Shown here: piece by piece, positions 34,175 to 41,404 of the stretch
Numbering within the stretch: position 1 is the first letter of the stretch
Layout of the letters: every line of letters starts with the position of its first letter
From: Mycobacterium marseillense
Lineage (GTDB): Bacteria > Actinomycetota > Actinomycetes > Mycobacteriales > Mycobacteriaceae
DNA length: 64,000 bases
NCBI RefSeq assembly: GCF_010731675.1
Contig: NZ_AP022584.1
Span: 4,960,001 to 5,024,000 of the forward strand
Direction of reading: 5' to 3'
Position numbers and translations under genes: made by a program
Notes under the pieces: generated by a model
What the model was told of the DNA's origin: nothing
The model's input: the letters and a program-made list of their open reading frames with translations, nothing else
Databases searched by the model: none

Positions 34175-34972
34175 ATGGGTGCACCAGAGGCCGATCTTGC
34201 CGGATGGTCGGCGGCGCCGTTCAGCGGCGGCGGTTACACCCACGACGTCTACCGCAAGGGCGCCGGCCCCGGCGTGGTGCTGATCCCGGAGCTGCCCGGG
34301 ATTCATCCCGGGGTGTTGGGTTTGGGTAATCACCTGGTGGACAACGGTTTCACCGTTGCCATCCCGTCACTGTTCGGTGAACCGGGCCGGACCGCGACGG
34401 CCGGTTACCTCGTCGGCGCCATCGCGCGAGCCTGTGTGACAAGGGAATTCGCGGCGTTGGCGCTGAACAAGCAGCGGCCGGTGGCGTCGTTCCTGCGCGC
34501 GCTGGCGCGCGACCTCAACGCCTCGACGCCGGGCAAGGGCGTCGGCGTGATCGGCCAATGCTTCACCGGCGGATTCGCGCTCGCCGCCGCGGTCGACGAC
34601 AGCGTGCTGGCGCCGGTGCTGTCGCAGCCGTCGGTGCCGTTCCCGCTCGGCGCCGCTCGCCGCCGCGACCCCGGCCTCAGCGAGTCCGAGCTGGCCACCG
34701 TGGCCGACCGCTGCGCCACCGACGGCTTGTGCGCCGTGGGATTGCGGTTCAGCGAGGACAAACTCGCGCCGGGCGAACGGTTCGCGACGCTCAAGGAGCG
34801 CCTGGGCGACGCCTTCGAGGTGATCGACATCGATTCGGGTCCGAACAATCAGCACGACTTCGCCAAGGCGGCGCACTCGGTGCTCACCGACGAGGTCCGC
34901 GAGGTCGACGGTCACCCCGCCTACGAGGCCCGCAAACGGGTCGTCGAATTCCTCACCGAGCGGCTCAGCTAG
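34175..34972 (+). CDS. dienelactone hydrolase family protein
   Basis: 265 residues of the alpha/beta-hydrolase superfamily. The nucleophile is a Cys (Cys129 in GVIGQCFTGG), as in dienelactone hydrolases rather than Ser esterases, and the C-terminal NNQHDF segment probably holds the catalytic His. The ATG at 34175 follows GAAGGGGA at good spacing, 12 bp after the DUF4245 gene, so the two may be co-transcribed. The substrate is unknown; the family opens lactones and related esters. I do not recall it at this place in M. tuberculosis, where toxin-antitoxin genes follow. Confidence 0.83.
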   Translation: MGAPEADLAGWSAAPFSGGGYTHDVYRKGAGPGVVLIPELPGIHPGVLGLGNHLVDNGFTVAIPSLFGEPGRTATAGYLVGAIARACVTREFAALALNKQRPVASFLRALARDLNASTPGKGVGVIGQCFTGGFALAAAVDDSVLAPVLSQPSVPFPLGAARRRDPGLSESELATVADRCATDGLCAVGLRFSEDKLAPGERFATLKERLGDAFEVIDIDSGPNNQHDFAKAAHSVLTDEVREVDGHPAYEARKRVVEFLTERLS

Positions 34973-34979
34973 TCGCCTT

Positions 34980-36251
34980 CTAGGCAAACCGCCTCGAGCC
35001 CGCGAAATTCTCGGTGAGATCGGCGGCCTTGGCGACGCTTTCGGCGGGCGTCGTCATCCGCGCGGCTAGCTCGCGCGCTCGGATTGCGTACTCAGGTGCC
35101 AAGATTCGGCGTAGGTCCGCTACAAGTGATTTTCGCGTGGTGGCCGATAGGCGGCGGTGGGTGCCTACCTTGAGGCGTCGTTTCACCTGAGCTCCCCAGA
35201 TGATCTGATTACCGTCCACGGAAAGGACCAGCGTCGGAATTCCGGCGCGCAGACTAGCGGCCGTCGTGCCCGAACCGCCGTGGTGCACGGCCGCGCGGCA
35301 GAGCGGAAAGATGGACGCGTAGTTCACCGTGCCGACAATTTTGACGTGATCGGAATGCGGGAGGTCGCCGAAGTCGCTCCAGCCGGCGCAAATCAACGCC
35401 CGCTCACCCAACTGCGCGCACGCTTCCGTGATCATCCCGACCGTGTCAGACGGAGATTCCACCGGCATGCTGCCGAAGCCGAAGAAAATTGGCGGTGCTC
35501 CACCGGCAATCCACGAGGCGACGTCGTCGTCGGCGCTCGTCGCCAACTCCATCGTCAGTGCGCCGACAAAGGGGCGCCGGTCCTGCCGTTCCGCCCATTC
35601 AGCGGCCAAGCCCGGGAACGCAACCTCGTCGTATGCCTGAATTTCCAATGCTCGCAATGCGGCAATCCGCCGCGGTGAGGAAGATGTTGTCTTCGGTAGG
35701 CCGAGCTCGCTTCGCTGAGTGTCTTCGAGCTTTTTGCTTAGCCGCCAAGTCAGCCAGTCGAACACCCGCACCGCGAAGCGAGACGCCGGTGCCGGCAAGA
35801 TCGCCACAACCTGGCCGTTGGGACGCATCGGGACGTGGTGCAGCGTGACCAGCGGAAGACCGTGATATTCCGCCACATTGGCGGCGATCTCCTGGTAGGT
35901 CTGCCCCGCGAGCACCAGGTCGGCCCCCTCCGCCAACGACTTCATCGTCTCGCTCATATGCGCCCACGACTGGTTGGTGACCTCCTTGATTTGGCGCCCC
36001 GACCGCGATATGTCCCGAACTCTCCAGAAGTTGCTGAACAGGGTCGTACTGAATTTGCGGAACGCATCCATCCAAGCGTTCGTCTCCGCCCCGTACGGCA
36101 CTGCGGAAAGGCCGGCCGATTGCGCGAAGCCGACCAGGTCGGGTGGGACCGCGATGCACACGTCATGCCCTCTGAGCTGCAGTTCGCGGCCAACGACGAC
36201 AGAAGGCTCGATATCGCCTCGAGTTCCATAGCTCGCCAGCGCAAATCTCAT
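34980..36251 (-). CDS. glycosyltransferase, GT1/GT28-type (Rv1524 and glycopeptidolipid Gtf-like)
   Basis: 423 residues. The N-terminal half starts MRFALASYGTRGDIEP, the acceptor-domain hallmark of sterol- and glycopeptidolipid-type glycosyltransferases. The C-terminal half has FGFGSMP and the nucleotide-sugar-binding stretch VHHGGSGTTAASLRAGIP. From memory it is strikingly similar to Rv1524 of M. tuberculosis and to the Gtf/Rtf enzymes that add sugars to glycopeptidolipids. The ATG at 36251 matches that family N-terminus; an ATG eight codons upstream also exists. It is less GC-rich than its neighbours and is divergent from the NRPS module across 261 bp, suggesting a shared accessory locus. 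Confidence 0.85.
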   Translation of the reverse strand: MRFALASYGTRGDIEPSVVVGRELQLRGHDVCIAVPPDLVGFAQSAGLSAVPYGAETNAWMDAFRKFSTTLFSNFWRVRDISRSGRQIKEVTNQSWAHMSETMKSLAEGADLVLAGQTYQEIAANVAEYHGLPLVTLHHVPMRPNGQVVAILPAPASRFAVRVFDWLTWRLSKKLEDTQRSELGLPKTTSSSPRRIAALRALEIQAYDEVAFPGLAAEWAERQDRRPFVGALTMELATSADDDVASWIAGGAPPIFFGFGSMPVESPSDTVGMITEACAQLGERALICAGWSDFGDLPHSDHVKIVGTVNYASIFPLCRAAVHHGGSGTTAASLRAGIPTLVLSVDGNQIIWGAQVKRRLKVGTHRRLSATTRKSLVADLRRILAPEYAIRARELAARMTTPAESVAKAADLTENFAGSRRFA

Positions 36252-36415
36252 GACGGATCTCAAACTTTCAGTCATCGTGTCCGGGCGCCGACGCGTCCGT
36301 GTCGCGGGTCCGGAACGAGCCTATGGCTTCGCCTGGGACTTGACAGGTGAACGACGACTCTTCCGCGCGGACTCCGGCGAGCCGGAAAACGAGGACGGGA
36401 CACGTTAGTTCTGAG

Positions 36416-36421
36416 TACTAT
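36416..36421 (+). promoter_or_regulatory. candidate -10 (TACTAT) for the NRPS module gene
   Basis: TACTAT is the only good TANNNT in the divergent region pointing at the NRPS; the leader would be about 85 nt. A perfect TTGACA stands at 36340-36345, too far upstream to pair with it and lacking its own -10. Confidence 0.3.
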
Positions 36422-36512
36422 TCGGGCATTTCACTATGTCGTCCAGGGGGCTGAGGAAATCGGTGTGCCTGATACCGCTGCGCCCTATGGGGGCCTCCTC
36501 GGTGGGTGAACG

Positions 36513-39500
36513 GTGAAGATGGAATCTGATTGCGGCGCGTTGCCGGCTGCCAATGCCGCCGACCCCGCCAAGAGGTTGTTGTCTATCGACTGGCTCGATG
36601 CCGATGAACACGGCCAGCTGGACGAATGGGGCAACCGAGCGGTCCTGGCGCAGCCCGCCCGCCCGCCGGTCTCGATTCCGGATATGTTCGCGGCGCGGGT
36701 GGCCCGCGACGCGGATGCGGTAGCGATCACCTGCGGAAGCCGCTCGATGACCTACGGCGAGCTGGACGTGGCATCTAATCGGTTGGCGCACCTGCTCGTT
36801 GGCCGCGGCGCCGCCCCCGGTGAGCGCGTGGCGATGCTGCTGCCGCGCTGCGCCGAGGCCATCGTGGCGGTCCTGGCGGTGATCAAGACCGGGGCGGCAT
36901 ACGTGCCGATGGATCCAGCACATCCCGACGCGCGCATCGGGCTGGTCGTCGGTGACGCCGCACCGATCGCCGTGATCACCACGGCGGATCTACGTCTGCG
37001 GGTGGATGCATCCGACGTGCCCGTTATCGACATCGCTGACCCGGCCATCGACGCGCAGTCCGGCGACGCGTTGCCAGTCCCCGCCGCCGACAACCTCGCC
37101 TACCTCGTCTATACCTCGGGCACCACCGGCATGCCCAAGGGTGTGGGGGTCACGCACCATAATGTGACCCGGCTCCTCGAATCACTCGGTGCCGAGCTGG
37201 CGCCGGGACAGGTGTGGACGCAATGTCATTCCCTGGCCTTCGATTACTCCGTCTGGGAGATCTGGGCTCCGCTTCTGTACGGCGGGCGGCTGCTGATGGT
37301 GCCGGATGGTGTCGTTCGTTCGTCGGAAGAATTCCACGCCCTGCTCGTGCGCGAACAGGTCAGCGTCTTGAGCCAGACTCCGTCGGCGTTCCACGCCCTG
37401 CAAACCGCCGACGCGCTGCACTCCGAGATGGGGCAGCTGAACCTGACGACGGTGGTCTTCGGCGGCGAAGCGCTTGAACCGCAACGCCTTGCGTCGTGGT
37501 TCCGTAATCATCCGGAGCTGCCGCGGATGATCAACATGTACGGCATCACCGAGACGACTGTGCACGCCTCGTTCCGGCAGATCGTCGCCCGCGACGTCGA
37601 CAACAGCGTCAGCCCGATCGGCGTGCCGTTGGAGCATCTGGCCTTCTTCGTACTGGACAAATTCCTGCGTCGGGTCTCGGTGGGAGCCGTCGGTGAGCTC
37701 TATGTGGCCGGTGCTGGAGTGGCCTCCGGGTACTGGGGCCGGTCCGGATTGACGGCGTCGCGGTTCGTGGCGTGCCCGTTCGGCGGTACGGACGCGTCTG
37801 GACAACGGATGTATCGCACCGGTGATCTGGTGCGCTGGGATGCCGACGGTGAGCTGCAGTATGTGGGCCGCGCGGATGAGCAGGTCAAAATCCGCGGATA
37901 CCGCATCGAGTTGGGCGAGATCAAGGCCGCCTTCGGTGAGCTGGATGGCGTGGATCAGGTGGCCGTGATCGCCCGTGAGGACCGCCCCGGTGACAGACGC
38001 CTGGTCGGCTATGTCACCGGGACCGCCGATCCGGTGAAAGTGCGCGCGCAACTGGCAGATCGCTTGCCGGAATACATGGTGCCTGCCGCGGTCGTGGGCC
38101 TGGCGGCTCTGCCGCTGACGGTCAACGGCAAACTCGACACACGCGCCTTGCCGCCGCCGGAATACTGGGACGCCGATCGTTACCGTGCACCGGGAGACGC
38201 GATCGAACAGGTTCTGGCCGATATTTACGCCCAAGTCCTCGGTGTCGAGCGGGTCGGCGTGGACGACCCGTTTTTCGACCTGGGTGGGGACAGCGTCTTG
38301 TCGATGCAGGTGGTGGCCCGGGCGCGGGCGGCCGGCGTGGCGTGTCGGCAACGGGATGTCTTCGTTGAGCAGACGGTGGCCCGACTTGCGCAGGTGGCCG
38401 TATTGCTCGATGGCGACCCGGCAGAAATCGATGAGGGCGCCGGCGCGGTGGTGGCCACCCCGATCATGCGCTGGCTACACGGTTTTGACGGTCCGGTCGA
38501 CGAGTACAACCAGACGGTGGTGGTGCAAGCTCCCGCCGGGGTGACCGAGGCCGACGTCGTCGTCGTGTTGCAAGCGCTGCTGGACCGGCACGCCATGTTG
38601 CGCCTGCGCGCCGAGGACACCGGGGAGGGCGATTGGTCGCTGTGGGTGCCCGAAGTAGGGGCCGTGGACGCCCGCGCCTGCCTGCGGGCGGTGGATGCGC
38701 TGTCCGATGAGGCGCTGGTGGCCGCGCGGTCACGGCTGAATCCGGCGGCGGGGGCGATGTTCACTGCGCTGTGGGTGCCAGACACGGGCCAGTTGGCTTT
38801 GATGATTCACCACCTGTCCGTGGATGTGCCGTCGTGGCGAATCCTGTTCGAAGACCTGAACATTGCTTGGGCGCAACATCATCACGGGCAGCCGGTGGAA
38901 TTGCCCACGGGCGGAACGTCGTTTGCCCGGTGGGGGTCGGTACTGAGTGAGCACGCACGAAGCGCGGCGGTCGTGGAACTGGCCGACACGTGGCGGCAAT
39001 TGCTGGAGACCCCCGCCGTATTGCCCGCGGTGCAACCGGCGGTCGACACCTATGCCGGCGCGGGTCACCTGTTGGCAGCGTTGGATATCGAGACCACTCA
39101 CCAGTTGTTGGGCGAGGTGTCGGCCGCGTTTCACGCTGGGGTGCAAGACATTCTGTTGATCGCATTCGGATTGGCGTGGAATGAATTCCTCGGCGCGGAT
39201 GGCGCCCCGATCGGCATCAACGTCAAAGGTCACGGCCGCGCCGAAGAACTGCGGCGCGACGTGGATCTGTCGCGCACCGTGGGGTGGTTCACCAGCAAGT
39301 ACCCGGTGGCGTTGACGGTGGGCGACCTGCCGTGGACGCTCGTGGCCGCCGGCGGCGCCGCGCTGGGGCCGTTGATAACGGCCGCTTTGGAACGGCTTCG
39401 CGCCATGCCTGACGGCCTGACCTACGGTCTGCTGCGCTATCTGAATCCCGAAGTGGGACTGGACGGTTCGGAGCCGGCCATCGAATTCAACTACCTCGGG

Positions 39501-39800
39501 CGGTTTGACGCCGATGCCGCCGGTCTCTCCGAAAATCTGTGGCGGGTCGACGAGGATGCCATGGCGGCCATCCCGGCGGCCTCGGCGATACCCACGCCGC
39601 TCGGCCACACCGTGGAATTCAACGCCGCCCTCCTGGACACCGGCACCGGCCAGCGCCTGCACGCGACGTGGACGTGGGCACCTTCGGCGCTGGACGACGA
39701 ACAGATCCAGCGGCTGAACCGGCTGTTGTTCGAGGCGCTGACCGGCATCTGCGCGCAGGTGCGGCAGGGTACGGGTGCTCAGCCGACATCGTCGAGCTGA
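36513..39800 (+). CDS. stand-alone NRPS module: adenylation - peptidyl carrier - epimerization
   Basis: 1095 residues. A domain (about 50-550) with the P-loop-like [44 protein letters not shown] and the C-terminal NGKLD lysine motif. PCP (565-640) with LGGDS and the phosphopantetheine Ser594. E domain (655-1085) with TPIMRW, HHLSVD (catalytic His767), [23 protein letters not shown] and FNYLGRFD. There is no condensation or thioesterase domain. Hand alignment to GrsA gives a pocket code near D-Y-W-S-V-G-M-V-H-K, closest to threonine-type codes. It should load one amino acid and epimerize it to D. The N-terminal RLLSIDWLD linker is typical of a lost upstream C domain. GTG 36513 or ATG 36519 may start it; an in-frame TGA at 36507 blocks anything longer. 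Confidence 0.9.
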
Positions 39801-39859
39801 CTGTCGACGATAATGACGTAACGACCCCTTTGAGCTCACTCGGGAGATTGTGCACGCGC

Positions 39860-41404
39860 ATGGCGATCGATGACCTGGTGATGGAAACCAGCTACGGCCC
39901 GGTCCGCGGTGTCGACGAGGGCCGCGTCACGGCGTGGAAGGGCATTCGCTACGCGGCGGCGCCGGTGGGCGACTTACGTTTTCGGGCGCCGCAACCGCCC
40001 GAGCGCTGGACCGAGATCGCCGACGCCACCGTGTTCGGGCCGGCCTGCCCGCAACCGATCTTTCCCAACATGCCGCTGGATCTGGGCGCACCGCAGGGCG
40101 AAGACTGCCTGCGGCTCAACGTCTGGGCATCCTCTGAGACCCGGCCCGGCGACGCCAAACCGGTGCTGGTGTGGCTGCACGGCGGCGCCTACGTCCTGGG
40201 ATCGAGCAGCCAGACGCTCTATGACGGCAGCAGGCTGGTCAGCCACGGCGACGTCGTCGTGGTGACCGTCAACTATCGGCTCGGGGTGCTCGGCTTTCTC
40301 GACCTGGCGTCATTCGACACGGCAGGGCGACGGTTCGACTCGAACGTGGGGCTGCGCGACGCGATCGCGGCGTTGGAGTGGGTGCGCGACAACATCGCCG
40401 CCTTCGGCGGCGACCCGCGACGGGTCACCCTGTTCGGTGAGTCCGCCGGGGCGGGCATCGTCACGACGCTGTTGGCCAGCCCGGCGGCCGAGGGCCTGTT
40501 CGCCGGCGCGATCGCGCAGAGTTCGCCGGCCACCTCGGTGTATGACCGCGACCGTGCGCATCGGGTCACCCAAGCGTTCCTCGACAAACTGGGAATCGCG
40601 CCGTCGGAGTCGCAGCGGCTGGTCGACATGCCGATGGCGGCGATCCTGGCCGCGTCGCAACAGGTCTTCGACGAAGTGCCGGCGCGCAACCCGGGAACTC
40701 TGGCGTTCGTGCCGATCGTCGACGGTGACCTGCTGGGCGACTACCCGGTCAAGCTTGCGCAAGAGGGCCGCACCCATCCGGTGCCGTTGATCATCGGCAC
40801 CAACAAACACGAGGCGGCCCTCTTCCGGCTGATGCGCTCGCCATTGATGCCGATCACCCCGAGCGCGATCACCTCGATGTTCAACCAGATCGCGGCGGAA
40901 CAACCCGATTTGCAGTTGCCCACCGAGGAAGTGATCGGCTCGGCGTATTCGCGATTGCGGCGCAAGGCACGGAGTCTGCGCATCGCGACCGACGTCGGCT
41001 TCCGGATGCCCTCGGTGTGGCTGGCCGAGGGGCACGCCCGGGTGGCGAAGGTGTATCTGTACCGGTTCGATTACGCCAGCCCGTTGTTGAAGCTGCTGAC
41101 GGTCGGGGCCGCGCACGCCACCGAATTGCCTTACGTCTGGGGAACTCTCGGTGCGCCCAAGGATCCCACGCTGAAACTCGGTGGCACCAGAACCGCCAAG
41201 GCGGTCTCCAAACGGGTGCGTGCCCGATGGATCAACTTCGCCGCGCACGCCAACCCCGCGGGCCCCGCGGGCGAGCCGGAATGGCCGCCGTACCGGACGA
41301 GCGATCGTGCCTGCCTGCTCATCGGCAAGAAGGACGCCCTCGCGCATGACGTCGACGCGAACATCCGCGCCGCGTGGGGCAGCGAGATGGTGAGCTTTCG
41401 CTAG
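39860..41404 (+). CDS. type-B carboxylesterase, full length (PnbA-like)
   Basis: 514 residues of the acetylcholinesterase/type-B family. Oxyanion motif LHGGAY, nucleophile Ser195 in FGESAGAG, and His419 in GAAHATELPYVWG are in place; the acidic member probably lies around residue 310. It should hydrolyse carboxylic esters; no signal peptide is visible. The ATG at 39860 is the first sensible start; CGGGAGA is 13 nt upstream, so the ribosome site is loose, and an ATG seven codons later is possible. From memory M. tuberculosis carries this gene as two adjacent fragments (Rv1104, Rv1105), so this is the intact form. It lies 59 bp after the NRPS module, and its stop interlocks with 3-beta-HSD. Confidence 0.88.
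   Translation: MAIDDLVMETSYGPVRGVDEGRVTAWKGIRYAAAPVGDLRFRAPQPPERWTEIADATVFGPACPQPIFPNMPLDLGAPQGEDCLRLNVWASSETRPGDAKPVLVWLHGGAYVLGSSSQTLYDGSRLVSHGDVVVVTVNYRLGVLGFLDLASFDTAGRRFDSNVGLRDAIAALEWVRDNIAAFGGDPRRVTLFGESAGAGIVTTLLASPAAEGLFAGAIAQSSPATSVYDRDRAHRVTQAFLDKLGIAPSESQRLVDMPMAAILAASQQVFDEVPARNPGTLAFVPIVDGDLLGDYPVKLAQEGRTHPVPLIIGTNKHEAALFRLMRSPLMPITPSAITSMFNQIAAEQPDLQLPTEEVIGSAYSRLRRKARSLRIATDVGFRMPSVWLAEGHARVAKVYLYRFDYASPLLKLLTVGAAHATELPYVWGTLGAPKDPTLKLGGTRTAKAVSKRVRARWINFAAHANPAGPAGEPEWPPYRTSDRACLLIGKKDALAHDVDANIRAAWGSEMVSFR

What the first reader, a model, noticed from the sequence alone, without database searches (positions are those of the whole stretch)
34980..41404. Orphan A-PCP-E NRPS module beside a glycopeptidolipid-type glycosyltransferase
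The 1095-residue enzyme has all the adenylation, carrier (GGDS) and epimerization motifs but no condensation or release domain, and no second module in the window. Its layout equals initiation enzymes such as GrsA/TycA. However, its N-terminus keeps a C-to-A linker typical of elongation modules, so it may derive from a larger synthetase. The hand-read pocket code (about DYWSVGMVHK) resembles threonine codes. Divergent to it is a glycosyltransferase of the group that glycosylates glycopeptidolipids, where D-allo-threonine is the glycosylated residue, and a type-B esterase lies just downstream. Together they could make a small D-amino-acid conjugate, feed a trans-acting NRPS, or be a GPL locus remnant.
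Basis: partly seen in the sequence, partly recalled or inferred. Interest (0 to 1): 0.75.

Follow-up and report, generated by a model that had tools for sequence, protein, structure and literature searches.

The report
Mobile threonine-loading and glycosylating gene pair
Two neighbouring genes, both related to the machinery that makes a mycobacterial surface glycolipid, form a small unit that probably loads threonine onto a carrier protein and attaches a sugar to it; the pair sits at different places in different mycobacteria, and its epimerization domain has lost a key catalytic residue.

Summary
The A-PCP-E protein (36513-39800) and the divergent glycosyltransferase (34980-36275) are real and belong together; the type-B esterase does not. 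In 6 of 6 genomes found to hold the stand-alone NRPS the two genes are neighbours, at three unrelated sites and in three orientations. In the window they form a ~4.85-kb insertion; 22 of the 30 closest flank loci have the esterase directly after the upstream gene. The NRPS forms a clade (support 1.0) beside module 2 of the GPL synthetase Mps1, the D-allo-threonine module, with the same pocket code; the host's own Mps1 is not in the sister group. The glycosyltransferase falls with Gtf1/GtfA, which glycosylates that threonine. Both genes are under purifying selection. The COM docking region is also missing. Best reading: a mobile GPL-derived cassette that makes carrier-bound, glycosylated L-threonine without epimerization. 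Product and acceptor are unknown.

The parts
34973..39851 (.). inserted cassette (about 4.83-4.88 kb) between the DLH-family gene and the carboxylesterase
   Evidence: left homology to empty sites ends at 34972 in 4 of 4 loci compared; right homology resumes at 39852 in L214 and L210, 39856 in L200, 39803 in L199; in L214 the two flanks are contiguous; empty sites
34980..36275 (-). glycosyltransferase of the Gtf1/GtfA group (431 aa)
   Evidence: Pfam; tree and identities; next to the NRPS in 6 of 6 genomes
36276..36512 (.). divergent intergenic region of the pair
   Evidence: between the two start codons; no sigma-70-type or terminator-like site found
36513..39800 (+). stand-alone A-PCP-E* NRPS protein (1095 aa)
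   Evidence: clade support 1.0
36672..38162 (+). adenylation domain (residues 54-550), code DYWSVGMVHK, threonine type
38175..38432 (+). carrier (PCP) domain, residues 555-640, LGGDS serine present
38433..39755 (+). epimerization-fold domain E* (residues 641-1081): HHxxxD kept, E4 glutamate replaced by K905
   Evidence: fold
39225..39227 (+). codon of K905, at the position of TycA E882

Best explanation
The GT and the A-PCP-E* protein are a mobile two-gene cassette derived from glycopeptidolipid (GPL) biosynthesis. Shown by sequence: common descent of the NRPS with Mps1 module 2 (the D-allo-Thr module) and grouping of the GT with Gtf1/GtfA (which glycosylates that Thr); persistent pairing at different genomic sites; purifying selection on both genes and on the E domain; replacement of the E-domain catalytic Glu by Lys in the whole clade seen; absence of C, COM and release domains. 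Inferred: the A domain (with an MbtH-type protein in trans) loads L-Thr onto the PCP. E* no longer epimerizes. It keeps the fold and holds or presents the aminoacyl-PCP, possibly as a platform for the GT, as the inactive X domain does for Oxy enzymes in glycopeptide synthesis. The GT adds a deoxysugar from the host's GPL sugar pool to the Thr hydroxyl. The carrier-bound glycosyl-threonine is then released or passed to an unknown acceptor, probably in the envelope.
For: Pairing: GT next to NRPS in 6 of 6 genomes (window, G246, G364, G117, G086, G108); in G117, G086 and G108 none of 16 other window ORFs tested has a match; three arrangements. Three more pairs are suggested by equal contig lengths: P0010/P0136, P0013/P0161, P0062/P0164. 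Empty site: 27 of 30 loci lack the pair; contiguous flanks in L214. Thr: the window's code is that of 50 of 148 other modules, and 16 of 16 stand-alone rows are within one residue of it; Mps1/Mps2 make D-Phe-D-alloThr-D-Ala-L-alaninol (PMC3537567, passages). Descent: (support 1.0 in full, A-only and E-only trees). gtf1 is listed as D-allo-threonine 6-deoxytalosyltransferase in PMC1885439 (passages). Lost Glu: 15 of 15 distinct stand-alone sequences K, 147 of 148 others E; 13 K and 108 E among 121 database proteins. The residue is called key catalytic, and its mutation used to inactivate E, in BacC4 (PMC12402864, passages); a deposited TycA construct (9bfg) carries Ala there. Constraint: dN/dS A 0.208, T 0.219, E 0.208 over 15 pairs. 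All 6 genomes also hold an Mps1-size ORF of 3429-3531 aa.
Against: No product, acceptor, sugar donor or expression is known. GPL Gtfs, to my knowledge (recalled), act on the finished lipopeptide, not on a carrier-bound amino acid. G234 (M. ahvazicum) has a GT of the group (75%) without the NRPS, so the pairing is not absolute. Lys can act as an acid/base, so loss of epimerization is not proven. The excess of clade-specific changes in E is weak (8 of 11 sites, p = 0.037). GT substrate is inferred from 65% identity to Gtf1 against 61% and 60% to Gtf2 and Gtf3, and the node uniting it directly with G091 Gtf1 has support 0.0 (the next node out, 0.997).
Confidence: 0.5

Rival explanations
1. E* has become a transferase: it keeps the His of the C superfamily and moves (glycosyl-)threonine from its own PCP to a lipid, sugar or amine acceptor, so the protein is self-sufficient without a C or TE domain.
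For: HHxxxD His and Asp kept in 16 of 16 stand-alone rows; E* as constrained as A; no other release domain; C-superfamily fold; in G117 an SfLAP (lipid-addressing, PF11139) gene lies between NRPS and GT.
Confidence: 0.2
2. One reading: an initiation module that makes D-allo-Thr and hands it to a DCL-type C domain of another NRPS of the genome.
For: A-T-E layout; many NRPSs in the genome (56 Condensation-family matches); Thr code. A 1093-aa A-T-E protein with Glu and a TPSD/COM tail (P0085) shows that such a layout exists near this family.
Against: Catalytic Glu replaced. The protein ends at the E/COM boundary: none of 13 Lys proteins has TPSD with a COM helix, while 22 of 25 Glu proteins that end within 212 residues of the motif do. 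COM is reported to accompany E domains always (PMC12402864, passages). The constant partner is a GT, not an NRPS.
Confidence: 0.1
3. E* still epimerizes, with Lys as the second acid/base, so the unit makes glycosylated D-allo-Thr as in GPLs.
For: The His and Asp of HHxxxD and the whole domain are conserved; its GT groups with an enzyme acting on D-allo-Thr.
Against: Glu at this position in 147 of 148 other modules; its mutation is used to inactivate E in BacC4.
Confidence: 0.13
4. A decaying GPL fragment without function, carried along by horizontal transfer.
For: GC3 lower than in the flanks (0.80 and 0.745 against 0.87), which fits acquisition from outside; lost catalytic Glu.
Against: Open frames in six genomes, dN/dS 0.17-0.27 (NRPS) and 0.07-0.18 (GT), pairing kept at three sites.
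Confidence: 0.05

Closest known systems
Mps1 module 2 (D-allo-Thr module) of the mycobacterial GPL synthetase
   Same: Sister clade; same A-T-E order; same pocket code; 69-72% identity to the 28 sister modules (row names)
   Different: Stand-alone; no upstream or downstream C domain; Lys for the catalytic Glu; V773P; no TPSD/COM region
Gtf1/GtfA (D-allo-Thr 6-deoxytalosyltransferase of GPLs)
   Same: Same GT group; 65% identity to G091 Gtf1
   Different: Outside the GPL locus and beside the stand-alone NRPS in 6 genomes; unpaired in G234
GrsA/TycA initiation modules
   Different: E882 equivalent is Lys; no COM donor region; no partner synthetase known
X domain of glycopeptide NRPSs (teicoplanin)
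   Different: X recruits P450s (recalled; PDB titles); here the partner would be a GT; not tested
GL8P locus of M. abscessus
   Same: A second GPL-like unit with NRPS and GT genes outside the GPL locus; glycosylated Thr
   Different: Two large synthetases making an octapeptide (PMC11978893, abstract and passages)

Membership tests
NRPS initiation module of the GrsA/TycA kind | A-PCP-E domain order | tested here: met
NRPS initiation module of the GrsA/TycA kind | catalytic His and Glu of the E domain | tested here: not met
   H767 present, Glu replaced by K905
NRPS initiation module of the GrsA/TycA kind | C-terminal COM donor region | tested here: not met
   C-terminal comparisons
NRPS initiation module of the GrsA/TycA kind | partner synthetase with N-terminal C domain | tested here: inconclusive
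   none in the window; docking to the other NRPSs of the genome was not tested
GPL synthetase Mps1 module 2 | common descent | tested here: met
   sister clade, support 0.963 in the full tree
GPL synthetase Mps1 module 2 | threonine pocket code | tested here: met
GPL synthetase Mps1 module 2 | C domains on both sides in one polypeptide, in the GPL locus | tested here: not met
   the window lies far from the Mps1-size ORF at C1:1567016-1577332
Gtf1/GtfA glycosyltransferases | falls with Gtf1, not Gtf2 or Gtf3 | tested here: met
   0.997 for the group that leaves out Gtf2 and Gtf3; 1.0 with the host's GtfA-like GT; 0.0 at the node joining G091 Gtf1
Gtf1/GtfA glycosyltransferases | transfers 6-deoxytalose to threonine | not testable with these tools
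   needs biochemistry
X-domain-like recruitment platform | C-superfamily fold after a PCP, with a lost catalytic residue | tested here: met
X-domain-like recruitment platform | binds the tailoring enzyme | not tested
   no complex was predicted

The most novel reading that the evidence does not exclude
An epimerization domain was converted, by fixed loss of its catalytic glutamate, into a non-epimerizing domain with a new job (docking platform for a glycosyltransferase, or a transferase that releases glycosyl-threonine). With its GT it forms a minimal self-standing glyco-amino-acid synthetase that spreads between mycobacteria as a cassette and draws on the GPL sugar pool.
Probability: 0.35. 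Interest if true: 0.8.

Novelty: new variant of a known kind. Interest (0 to 1): 0.62.

Why it matters
Two enzymes related to those that act in succession on one residue of a large lipopeptide have been cut out of their pathway, paired and kept together at several genomic sites. If they work as proposed, there is an undescribed glycosylated amino acid (or conjugate) in M. intracellulare- and M. colombiense-related and other mycobacteria, and a natural case of an E domain given a new function. It is directly testable with two purified proteins.

Tried and rejected
Esterase as part of the unit: rejected, it is a flank. Recent truncation of the host's own Mps1: rejected, the host's modules are 68% identical and not in the sister group. 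Mobile-element ends: no convincing terminal repeats; the means of movement is unknown. SfLAP partner near the window: no match at E 1e-3 in the window or in nine other loci, only in its own locus L129. Defence-system models: none. Promoter scan of the divergent region: nothing. The first AlphaFold model (21 rows, mean pLDDT 62.9) was too weak and was not searched; the second (105 rows, P0062 entered twice; pLDDT 82.0) was used. Families missing from the structure lists are not excluded. Literature: searches listed no paper whose title or abstract start names a stand-alone A-T-E/GT pair in mycobacteria; only open-licence papers are held, and I read outlines or passages, no whole paper. Passages of PMC5808125, PMC11212132, PMC11012974, PMC13372681 and PMC13324335 gave nothing on the E-domain glutamate. 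The GrsA mutagenesis paper (Stachelhaus and Walsh 2000) was seen only in reference lists; the GrsA residue number is recalled.

Against a simple rule 'A-T-E length means Lys': P0085 (1093 aa) is an A-T-E protein with Glu and a TPSD/COM tail; it may be real or a gene-prediction fragment. P0009, a Lys protein, ends in a TPST remnant without the helix.
Full report
What is there. The window is C1:4960001-5024000 of a 5.5-Mb mycobacterial genome. The ORF at 36513-39800(+) encodes 1095 residues with an adenylation domain, a carrier domain with LGGDS and one C-superfamily domain of the epimerization type; Pfam shows no second C, TE or reductase domain. It is the only one of the genome's 56 Condensation-family matches that lies in the window. 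The GT at 34980-36275(-) has Glyco_transf_28 and EryCIII-like domains.

The two genes are a unit. Among 198 genomes of the genus, the best matches to the NRPS outside the window are stand-alone proteins of 75-80% identity in G117, G086 and G108; the next are modules inside ORFs of about 3440 residues. By equal contig length G117 is M. colombiense GF76, G108 is Mycobacterium sp. 852013-50091_SCH5140682 and G234 (below) is M. ahvazicum. In all three the GT is next door, while none of 16 other window ORFs tested (some of them overlapping frames) has a match at E 1e-10 in those 20-kb loci. A GT search over 396 genomes added G246 and G364, where the pair sits at the window's own site, and G234, where a 75% GT has no such NRPS in the 20 kb around it. 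A search with the most divergent stand-alone protein (P0062) over 396 genomes returned the same six genomes at the top; only two candidates per genome were scored, so rarer copies may be missed. The arrangement differs: divergent in the window, G246 and G364; same strand in G117; convergent with a 4-base overlap in G086 and G108. In G117 an SfLAP-family gene lies between them. Equal contig lengths suggest three more pairs, P0010/P0136, P0013/P0161 and P0062/P0164.

The window copy is an insertion. Of the 30 best loci of the upstream DLH-family gene from 396 genomes, 3 (window, G364, G246) carry the GT after it. In 22 the carboxylesterase follows directly, in 4 the 3beta-HSD-like gene comes instead, and in 1 neither is seen in 1.5 kb. 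In four loci compared closely, homology stops at 34972 and resumes at 39852 (L214, L210), 39856 (L200) or 39803 (L199); in L214 the two ends are contiguous. M. colombiense G117 has the empty site here (L202) and the pair elsewhere. So the esterase is a flank, not a partner. GC3 of the cassette (0.80, 0.745) is below that of the flanks (0.87). No terminal repeats stand out.

Where the parts come from. In a tree of 161 A-T-E modules the 15 stand-alone sequences are one clade with support 1.0 in the whole-module, A-only and E-only trees. The sister group of the full tree is 28 modules, all with the code DYWSVGMVHK (support 0.963), among them those of M. chelonae, M. septicum, M. lehmannii and M. 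frederiksbergense; the host's own modules are not in it. I read these as module 2 of Mps1: they are the second of the modules in Mps1-size ORFs, the host's being C1:1567016-1577332, 3439 aa, and Mps1/Mps2 build D-Phe-D-alloThr-D-Ala-L-alaninol (PMC3537567, passages). In a GT tree the paired GTs fall with the host's GtfA-like enzyme (support 1.0) and with Gtf1 to the exclusion of Gtf2 and Gtf3 (0.997; the node joining G091 Gtf1 itself has 0.0). Identity to G091 Gtf1, Gtf2 and Gtf3 is 65, 61 and 60%. The G091 genes were named by matching their order and strand to the table of PMC1885439, where gtf1 is the D-allo-threonine 6-deoxytalosyltransferase, gtf the alaninol rhamnosyltransferase and gap the export protein (passages). 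Both members of the pair are thus related to enzymes that act on the same threonine.

The E domain has changed. K905 aligns with position 882 of TycA chain 9bfd_A (counted from the printed range) and with the Glu of the EGHGR motif in GrsA, TycB and PvdL. A TycA PCP-E construct in the PDB (9bfg) has Ala there. In BacC4, H4755A and E4893A are used as mutations of 'key catalytic residues' that inactivate the E domain (PMC12402864, passages); the His-Glu spacing there, 138, is that of H767-K905. Of 121 proteins kept from the database search (the 120 listed of 2812, plus the window's), 13 have Lys and 108 Glu; the 13 are twelve A-T-E proteins of 1047-1109 residues and one 756-residue fragment. One A-T-E protein of similar length, P0085, has Glu. 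In the module alignment Lys is found in 16 of 16 stand-alone rows (15 distinct), Glu in 147 of 148 others; the exception, from M. szulgai, has Val and has also lost the His. The His and Asp of HHxxxD are kept in 16 of 16. A Pro two residues after that Asp (V773P) accompanies the Lys in 13 of 13 proteins, but G364 has Ser. Of 11 sites that separate the clade from Thr-code modules, 8 lie in E (p = 0.037, weak). The Lys proteins end 185-204 residues after the Lys, without TPSD and COM helix (P0009 keeps a TPST remnant); of 25 Glu proteins that end within 212 residues of the motif, 22 carry TPSD and the following stretch, P0085 among them. COM domains are reported to accompany E domains always (PMC12402864; TPSD boundary PMC11546977; passages).

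How it may work. Shown: descent, pairing, insertion, constraint, residue loss. Inferred: L-Thr is loaded on the PCP, is not epimerized, is glycosylated by the GT with a sugar from the GPL pool (all six genomes also hold an Mps1-size ORF), and leaves to an unknown acceptor. Two jobs for E* seem open: a platform for the GT, like the X domain that recruits Oxy enzymes (recalled; PDB titles), or a transferase that keeps the C-superfamily His. Against this stand the lack of any product, the possibility that Lys can replace Glu, the unpaired GT in M. ahvazicum, and the modest margin between Gtf1 and the other Gtfs.

Verdict. A real, conserved and mobile two-gene unit; a new variant of known kinds (GPL module 2 and Gtf1) rather than a new kind of system. 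Interest 0.62.

Noticed in passing
G000:C1:1633786-1644039 (L133): A second Mps1-size synthetase (3441 aa) besides the one at C1:1567016-1577332; its module at 1639483-1642722 has code DFWSVGLVHK.
   Followed up: partly
G000:C1:1195720-1224495 and 1537130-1558747: Very large NRPS frames of 10449 and 8291 aa. Product unknown to me.
   Followed up: no
L178:5246-17376 (M. ahvazicum): A GT of the paired group (75%) beside two further GTs and an ORF with only a condensation domain (542 aa), next to a restriction-helicase gene; no stand-alone NRPS.
   Followed up: partly
L129:9084-9920 (M. colombiense GF76): SfLAP (sulfolipid-1-addressing, PF11139) gene between the stand-alone NRPS and the GT on the same strand, suggesting an exported lipid-like product.
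   Followed up: partly
L102:10001 (M. szulgai): A Thr-code module whose E domain has lost both the His (Q) and the Glu (V): a separate change of an E domain.
   Followed up: no
P0085: A 1093-aa A-T-E protein with Glu and a TPSD/COM tail on a 1.16-Mb contig: possibly a real one-module initiation-type protein related to this family.
   Followed up: no
window 39539-41404: The listed GTG start of the esterase ORF overlaps the NRPS; homology suggests the real start is near 39860.
   Followed up: partly
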